41,701 nt of DNA, from assembly GCA_027445725.1 (NCBI GenBank), contig DAIAVG010000001.1:1-41701 (forward strand). Reading direction: 5' to 3'. Numbering within the stretch: position 1 is the first letter of the stretch; every line of letters starts with the position of its first letter. The notes under the pieces are model-generated. The model searched no databases. It had not been told where the DNA came from and saw only the letters and a list, made by a program, of their open reading frames with translations. Below are positions 8,292 to 8,807 of this stretch, piece by piece. This stretch comes from Acidithiobacillus sp. (GTDB lineage: Bacteria; Pseudomonadota; Gammaproteobacteria; Acidithiobacillales; Acidithiobacillaceae). The translations under genes were made by a program, and so were the position numbers.

Positions 8292-8807
8292 ATGCAAACG
8301 AACAAAACCGAAGCAGGTTTCACCCTGATCGAGTTGATGATCGTCATCGCCATCATCGGCATTCTGGCGGCCATCGCCATTCCGCAGTACGAGAAGTACA
8401 TCGCCACGGCCAAAGCACAGGATGTGTCGCAGAACCTGCATCAGGCCGTTACGGCGGTGTCAGCCGCGGTGGCGGCGGCGCAGGCGGGACAATCCACAAC
8501 AATGACGGGTACTGGTGGTGACCTTGGCACCCAGAATGATCCGGCTGACACAGCGGTTGCGGCTTATGTTTCCGGTACGCCCGGGGCGTGTGGAGAAATC
8601 GGGGTTTCGCCGAACATTATTGACCCTGCATCCACCGCCACATCGGCAGCCATCGTCGTAGACGATACTTGCACGTCAACGACGGTGCAGGCGGATATTG
8701 CCGCCGCAGTCAGCGCCGAAGGATATGGCACGGCCTACGGTTCCACAACCGCCGGTGGTTCCAATATCACCATCAGCATAAGCGGCAATGGTGCCATTGC
8801 TCCGTAA
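8292..8807 (+). CDS. Type IV prepilin-like protein inside the trb operon
   Basis: A 171-residue protein with a textbook class III signal: a short leader MQTNKTEAG, cleavage before [20 protein letters not shown], and Glu at mature position 5. This is the N-terminus of type IV pilins and pseudopilins, which need a PilD-type prepilin peptidase and a PilB/PilC-type machine, not a VirB system. The C-terminal domain is Ala/Thr/Ser-rich with two Cys residues (PGACGEIG and DDTCTST) that could form a loop. GAGGAG precedes ATG 8292. No prepilin peptidase or pilus motor gene is present in the window, so host chromosomal machinery would be required. A terminator follows. Major pilin or minor pilin/pseudopilin cannot be told apart here. 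Confidence 0.9.

What the first reader, a model, noticed from the sequence alone, without database searches (positions are those of the whole stretch)
8292..8807. Type IV prepilin gene placed between trbC and trbD of a conjugation operon
A canonical prepilin N-terminus (G then [15 protein letters not shown], Glu5) lies between the VirB2-type pilin and the VirB3-type gene. The two pilus systems use different assembly machines. An ICE that adds its own type IV pilin, relying on host PilD and pilus motor, could redirect host type IV pili to bring partner cells together. It is bounded by a stem-loop and a terminator.
Basis: partly seen in the sequence, partly recalled or inferred. Interest (0 to 1): 0.7.

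Follow-up and report, generated by a model that had tools for sequence, protein, structure and literature searches.

The report
Type IV pilin inside conjugation operon
A mobile element in an acid-loving Acidithiobacillus bacterium carries, inside the genes for its DNA-transfer machine, a gene for a different kind of surface fibre subunit that it probably has the host assemble, perhaps to help cells meet for DNA transfer.

Summary
The ORF at 8292-8807 (171 aa) is a genuine type IV prepilin (Pfam N_methyl 2.5e-9) between trbC and trbD of a P-type trb cluster, on an element integrated at a tRNA-Ala gene of an Acidithiobacillus species. It is a type IVa-like PilA from the pool of the genus's chromosomal major pilin (pilA1): 71% identical to one chromosomal copy, and identical over its first 28 mature residues to the host species' own PilA1. 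PilB and PilD are found in most held genomes of the family, so host assembly is plausible. The exact order is not conserved: 0 of 40 other measured trbC-trbD gaps hold a prepilin, and the nearest relatives carry another small ORF there, so the gap is a variable slot. Type IV pilus genes do sit near trb genes in seven other loci: three with prepilins plus minor pilins, PilC or a PilB-like gene, four with thin-pilus-like (type IVb) sets. Contact with mating partners is the likeliest purpose but untested; cargo (attachment, phage escape) is a close rival. The flanking hairpins are no stronger than chance. New variant of a known kind, pilus-assisted conjugation.

The parts
8292..8807 (+). type IVa-like prepilin (PilA family), 171 aa, leader MQTNKTEAG
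7830..8210 (+). trbC, VirB2-type conjugative pilin
   Evidence: PF04956 5.1e-15
8980..9285 (+). trbD, VirB3-type
   Evidence: PRK13823 89 bits over cut-off 60; PF05101
8211..8979 (+). variable slot between trbC and trbD (769 bases here); DNA homology to the nearest relatives stops at 8209 and resumes at 8997
8871..8885 (+). terminator-like hairpin followed by TTTTTT after the pilin; not beyond chance for the region
6684..7655 (+). trbB ATPase
   Evidence: PF00437 4.9e-38
9307..11754 (+). trbE (VirB4)
   Evidence: PF03135 2.6e-13; 96% to a locus of A. ferrivorans DSM 22755
17457..23696 (+). trbJ, trbL, trbF, trbG, trbI
2768..4492 (+). YadA-type trimeric autotransporter adhesin on the same element
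   Evidence: PF05662 6.9e-18
28859..30028 (-). tyrosine integrase at the element's end
   Evidence: PF00589 1.2e-25
30160..30235 (-). tRNA-Ala(GGC), inferred attachment site
   Evidence: homology to G001 ends at 30154

Best explanation
An integrated trb-type conjugative element has taken up a copy of an Acidithiobacillus chromosomal major type IVa pilin gene (pilA1 type) into its variable trbC-trbD gap. Shown: it is a complete prepilin gene with an intact cleavage site, on the same strand as the trb genes; it belongs with the pilA1 pool; most held genomes of the family encode PilB and PilD. Inferred: host PilD cuts it after Gly9 and the host's PilB/PilC/PilQ machine polymerises it, alone or mixed with host PilA, since the filament-core residues are the same while the exposed domain differs. 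Inferred: made along with the T4SS, the altered pili pull donor and recipient cells together (perhaps with the element's YadA-type adhesin), the job that plasmid-encoded type IVb thin pili do for IncI plasmids, here done by supplying a single subunit to the host machine.
For: Prepilin motif and domain. Homologues: 6289 under 1e-3 among 7995 scored; of the 120 listed, those that bear an organism name are Acidithiobacillus. In the pilin tree the window's wider clade (80 rows, weak support 83/72) holds one chromosomal pilA1, L029/P0047, and 78 rows without known context. Mature identity is 111 of 156 to L029 and 69 of 162 to the host species' PilA1 (L047, G001), identical over the first 28. PilB over cut-off in 27 of 29 and PilD domain in 26 of 29 family genomes, including G003, G008, G014 and G015, the near relatives of the host. 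AlphaFold model mean pLDDT 86.8 with helix 12-64. Type IV pilus genes recur near trb genes: L099 (two PilA-like prepilins and minor-pilin-like genes upstream of trbB-C-D-E); L104 (trbJ-trbL, then prepilins, a PilC-type protein and two minor prepilins); L026 (trbI, then two prepilins and an ATPase that looks like PilB by eye); thin-pilus-like sets near trb in G005 (Pfam), G020 (partly checked), G012 and G022 (by eye). The pilus of plasmid TP114 serves mating-pair stabilisation (PMC9045228, passages); PAPI-1 transfers with a type IVb pilus (PMC5297154, abstract).
Against: No expression or mating data. Order not conserved: 0 of 40 other measured trbC-trbD gaps; nearest relatives have a 56-64 aa membrane-like ORF there. 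Prepilins were found in only three of about 67 other trb loci scanned, many of them short contigs. The L099 and L104 pilins fall in another clade (98/94) than the window pilin, so they show repeated recruitment, not a shared trb pilin. G001, the same species by 99.63% over 9.7 kb, shows neither PilB nor PilD over cut-off (81% complete); G002 (labelled 100% complete) lacks both too, G029 lacks PilD. The PilD domain also rings in 8 of 14 control genomes, so it is not specific to type IVa pili. ICEAfe1 authors state that Acidithiobacillus Tfp pili have no role in conjugation (PMC6370655, passage). The coupling protein TraG is split over two frames (57-596 and 626-1669), so this copy may not transfer, unless that is a sequencing error.
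Confidence: 0.42

Rival explanations
1. Cargo pilin: the element carries an alternative major pilin that benefits the host cell outside conjugation, for example by changing attachment to minerals, electron transfer, or the pilus receptor used by phages. The trbC-trbD gap is merely a permissive insertion slot.
For: The slot is variable: the nearest relatives carry an unrelated small membrane-like ORF and a second trbC; others have an outer-membrane-like protein or relaxase-like genes between trbB and trbD (relaxase by eye). The exposed part of the pilin diverges strongly from the host's own (dN 0.98 past codon 55 against 0.18 before). Pilin third-position GC (64%) is lower than that of six trb genes (68-87%), pointing to a separate origin. 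Type IV pili are reported to serve adhesion and electron transfer in this genus (PMC6370655, passage).
Against: Type IV pilus genes recur near trb genes in seven other loci in several forms, which a neutral cargo slot does not readily explain.
Confidence: 0.37
2. Passive passenger: a recombination product without selected function, on an element that may be decaying (split traG).
For: Absent from the same place in all 40 other measured gaps; traG split over two frames.
Against: Intact ORF with an intact cleavage site; a 99% identical copy on another contig (P0001); low dN in the first 55 codons against the chromosomal relative L029 (0.033 with dS 1.78), though that constraint may predate the move.
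Confidence: 0.13
3. The pilin is a working part of the T4SS itself, for example a pseudopilin-like plug or cap of the Trb channel.
For: Position between two Trb pilus/channel genes only.
Against: Other trb systems, including relatives with TrbE 94-96% identical, do without it at that place; the protein is closest to filament-forming PilA, not to a T4SS part.
Confidence: 0.04

Closest known systems
Chromosomal pilA1 major pilin of Acidithiobacillaceae (e.g. L029 in G029)
   Same: Same mature N-terminus; full-length homology, 71% identity to L029
   Different: Chromosomal copies sit in a pilA1 locus, often with a second pilin, and have leaders such as MSMLVKKAQASAEAG (by eye); the window copy sits in trb and has MQTNKTEAG
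Type IVb thin pilus of IncI plasmids (TP114) and of PAPI-1
   Same: Type IV pilus genes linked to a conjugative T4SS; role in mating shown there (PMC9045228 passages, PMC5297154 abstract)
   Different: PAPI-1 encodes ten pilus genes and TP114 a PilS/PilV pilus; the window has one type IVa-like pilin and no assembly gene seen
trb loci with linked prepilins found here: L099 (A. ferrivorans DSM 22755 genome), L104 (G025), L026 (Nitrospirae MAG)
   Same: Prepilin genes in line with trb genes, same strand
   Different: Pilins lie upstream of trbB or after trbL/trbI, with minor pilins, PilC or a PilB-like gene; none lies between trbC and trbD; L099 and L104 pilins form another clade

Membership tests
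type IV pilin (PilA, type IVa) | class III leader: Gly-1, Phe+1, Glu+5, short leader | tested here: met
   motif in 119 of 120 listed homologues
type IV pilin (PilA, type IVa) | Pfam N_methyl / TIGR02532 over cut-off | tested here: met
   PF07963 36.7 bits over 21.2; TIGR02532 33.4 over 16.3
type IV pilin (PilA, type IVa) | long N-terminal alpha helix with C-terminal sheet domain (PilA fold) | tested here: inconclusive
type IV pilin (PilA, type IVa) | cysteine pair bounding a C-terminal D-region | tested here: inconclusive
   two cysteines, at 100 and 127; pairing not tested, and 44 residues follow the second
PpdD (PRK10574) or Myxococcus PilA equivalogs | score over the curated full-length cut-off | tested here: not met
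   52 bits against 138 and 50.6 against 400; the chromosomal pilA1 L029 also fails both, so it is not filed as those orthologues
type IV pilin (PilA, type IVa) | cleaved by PilD and assembled into a filament | not testable with these tools
   needs experiment; PilB/PilD genes in most family genomes
conjugative type IVb thin pilus system (IncI, PAPI-1) | PilS-type pilin (PF08805) | tested here: not met
   only PF07963 hit in Pfam at 0.001
conjugative type IVb thin pilus system (IncI, PAPI-1) | own secretin, ATPase and platform protein encoded on the element | tested here: inconclusive
   none among the window ORFs scanned with Pfam; the element's left part lies outside the window
integrative conjugative element | integrase and insertion at a tRNA end | tested here: met
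   att repeats not sought, left end outside window
integrative conjugative element | mating-pair T4SS genes | tested here: met
   TrbB, C, D, E, J, L, F, G, I
integrative conjugative element | relaxase and intact coupling protein | tested here: inconclusive
   no relaxase among scanned ORFs; TraG split over two frames; left end not in window

The most novel reading that the evidence does not exclude
A conjugative element commandeers the host's type IVa pilus by supplying only the major pilin from inside its own T4SS operon. It thereby recodes the surface of a retractable host fibre into a mating-partner grappling line, without carrying an assembly machine.
Probability: 0.3. Interest if true: 0.75.

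Novelty: new variant of a known kind. Interest (0 to 1): 0.52.

Why it matters
If true, two pilus systems with different assembly machines are joined by a single gene: the mobile element would borrow the host's retractable pilus to find partners. That would extend pilus-assisted conjugation from elements that carry their own type IVb systems to elements that carry only a subunit, and one deletion would test it. It also points to a wider link between P-type trb elements and type IV pilus genes in this bacterial family.

Tried and rejected
Conserved trbC-pilin-trbD order: rejected (0 of 40 other gaps). For L020 the printed gap of 518 comes from a second TrbC-like ORF; the true gap is about 196. 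Hairpins as evidence of regulation: dropped, no better than chance. Sigma-70 promoter: none found in 7600-9400; a sigma-54 site was looked for by eye only and not seen. Plasmid collection: no match to the pilin, while TrbE matched at least 5000 plasmid records. Viral contigs: no relative of pilin or TrbE. Genomic context of most listed homologues (P0001-P0120) could not be read; their leaders vary, which hints at several loci but proves none. The strict motif filter flagged one spurious 57-aa ORF (L116); one search used a profile instead. The alignment used for the fold held 55 homologues that I chose out of 120. dS between window pilin and L029 was not computable over the whole gene, so no whole-gene dN/dS was obtained. 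Of 398 phylum genomes searched with TrbD, 8 matched and gave 9 loci, in none of which a prepilin was found (1.5-kb flanks). The L099 and L104 pilins as members of one trb-pilin lineage with the window's: rejected by the tree.

Counting note: 74 loci were scanned. Four repeat others (L109, L110, L111, L139) and two are flanks of L105 (L140, L141), leaving 68 with the window; some contigs of one genome may be pieces of one element (G025: L104, L117, L124, L133; G008: L135, L138). The trbC-trbD gap could be measured in 40 of these besides the window; in the rest TrbC or TrbD was not recognised or the contig was cut. Flanks L142-L148 were not in that scan.

Full report
What is there. The ORF 8292-8807 (+) is a complete type IV prepilin of 171 residues. 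Its leader MQTNKTEAG ends in the cleavage-site glycine, followed by [24 protein letters not shown]. Curated full-length pilin equivalogs are matched only over the N-terminal part and below their cut-offs; the same holds for the chromosomal pilA1 L029. The gene starts 81 bases after trbC and ends 172 bases before trbD, on their strand. Around it are trbB, trbE, trbJ, trbL, trbF, trbG and trbI.

The element. A tyrosine integrase (28859-30028) lies next to a tRNA-Ala gene (30160-30235). From 30154 to 39855 the window is 99.63% identical to one contig of genome G001, and the match stops just past the 3' end of that tRNA gene; a 6.25-kb probe from this flank is 100% identical. Beyond the tRNA, G001 has two genes that look like ABC transporters by eye, and no integrase. 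So this is an element integrated at tRNA-Ala in the species represented by G001. The genomes next closest over this flank are G008 (92-94% over the parts it covers), G003 (91%), G009 (90-91%, in parts), G014 and G015 (90%). G015 gives the same TrbE places as the A. ferrivorans DSM 22755 loci L001 and L002. The element's left end is outside the window. Its coupling protein gene is split over two frames (57-596 and 626-1669), which may be decay or a sequencing error.

Where the pilin comes from. The protein search found 6289 homologues under 1e-3 among 7995 scored and listed 120; those with an organism name are Acidithiobacillus. Some pilin matches in 55 of 57 genomes searched, 29 of which are from the family. 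In many family loci the match is a chromosomal locus with a pilA1-like gene, often beside a second pilin (by eye). In a tree of 153 pilins the window pilin pairs with P0001 (100/99) inside a wider, weakly supported clade of 80 rows that holds one chromosomal pilA1, L029. Identity of the mature parts is 111 of 156 to L029 and 69 of 162 to the PilA1 of the host species (L047, G001); against the latter the first 28 residues are identical and most divergence lies past codon 55. The N-terminal residues that pack in a pilus core (general knowledge of type IV pili) are thus shared with the host, while the exposed part differs.

The slot. DNA homology to the nearest relatives L001 and L002 stops at the end of trbC (8209) and resumes at 8997 inside trbD. 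Their gap of 456 bases holds a 56-64 aa membrane-like ORF, and they carry two trbC copies. In 40 other distinct trb loci with a measurable gap none holds a prepilin (counting rule in Tried and rejected). The trbB-trbD stretch carries other extra genes elsewhere, for example an outer-membrane-like protein in L019 and L105 (Pfam autotransporter domain, 20 bits, under its cut-off of 26) and relaxase-like genes in L003 and L006 (by eye).

Is the link between trb and type IV pili wider? In L099 (G015 contig C49) two PilA-like prepilins, one further prepilin over the Pfam cut-off and one just under it stand upstream of trbB-trbC-trbD-trbE, with a 760-aa ORF in between. In L104 (G025) trbJ-trbL is followed by a prepilin, a 57-aa prepilin piece, a PilC-type platform protein (T2SSF 1.8e-48) and two minor prepilins. 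In L026 (a Nitrospirae MAG) trbI is followed within 650 bases by two prepilins and then an ATPase that looks like PilB by eye. In G005 a thin-pilus-like set (PilM, secretin, PilO, ATPases, platform protein, PilS) lies some kilobases from trb; G012 has the same set, G020 and G022 similar ones (G020 partly checked; G012 and G022 by eye). No prepilin peptidase was sought in these sets. Against this, prepilins were found in only three of about 67 other trb loci. The genomes G015 (880 contigs, 7% contamination) and G025 are fragmented. The L099 and L104 pilins fall together in another clade (98/94), with a pilin of G005 (L102) that was found without trbE nearby. So pilins seem to have joined trb clusters more than once.

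The machine. PilB (TIGR02538) is over cut-off in 27 of 29 genomes of the family, and in 0 of 14 control genomes; the prepilin-peptidase N-terminal domain is over cut-off in 26 of 29, and in 8 of 14 controls, so it is the less specific of the two. The exceptions are G001, the host's species (81% complete), and G002 for both, and G029 for the peptidase. No PilB, PilC or PilD was found among the window ORFs scanned with Pfam.

Reading. The safest statement is that a mobile element carries a type IVa-like pilin from the host genus inside its transfer operon. The likeliest use is contact with mating partners through the host's pilus machine, by analogy with plasmid TP114 (PMC9045228, passages read) and PAPI-1 (PMC5297154, abstract read). 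The close rival is cargo that alters the host's pili for other purposes. ICEAfe1 work states that the genus's Tfp pili have no role in conjugation (PMC6370655, passages), with no test reported in the passages that I read. In Geobacter, conjugative plasmids lower pilA transcription (PMC10063792, passages), so cross-talk between the two pilus types has a precedent. PMC6416229 (passages) lists T4P among targets on ICEAcaTY.2, so pilus functions on ICEs of this genus have been noted before.

Print. Searches of the paper library with terms for Acidithiobacillus, ICE, trb, pilin, prepilin, type IVa/IVb and thin pilus showed, in the titles and abstract openings listed, nothing that describes a type IVa pilin within a trb operon. 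The library lacks most subscription journals, and supplementary files were not searched.

Noticed in passing
window 57-596 and 626-1669: The TraG coupling protein is split over two reading frames (profile positions 76-216 and 228-454); a relative in G013 has a 752-aa ORF (L140). Decay or sequencing error.
   Followed up: partly
window 2768-4492; L140 4309-6420; L003 15844-18102: YadA-type trimeric autotransporter adhesins on trb elements in three places, a second candidate for mating-cell adhesion.
   Followed up: partly
L142, L144, L145, L146: Thin-pilus-like (type IVb) gene sets near trb clusters in four Acidithiobacillaceae genomes.
   Followed up: partly
L145 10619-12658: A T2SSE-family ATPase ORF that also holds Hint and LAGLIDADG homing-endonuclease domains, an intein by look.
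   Followed up: no
L001 3381-4229; L002 3174-4202: trbC is present twice in the A. ferrivorans DSM 22755 elements; the first copy has a different C-terminus.
   Followed up: no
P0001-P0120: Leaders and mature parts of these pilins look reshuffled: the leader MQTNKTEA occurs with mature parts only about 60% alike (P0001, P0052), suggesting exchange between pilin loci.
   Followed up: no
window 4993-6687 and 23910-26024: Two large element proteins (564 and 704 aa) without Pfam match at 0.01; the first has relatives before trbB in L001, L002, L019 and L105.
   Followed up: no
L026 16323-18409: Nitrospirae MAG: trbI followed by two prepilins and an ATPase that looks like PilB.
   Followed up: partly
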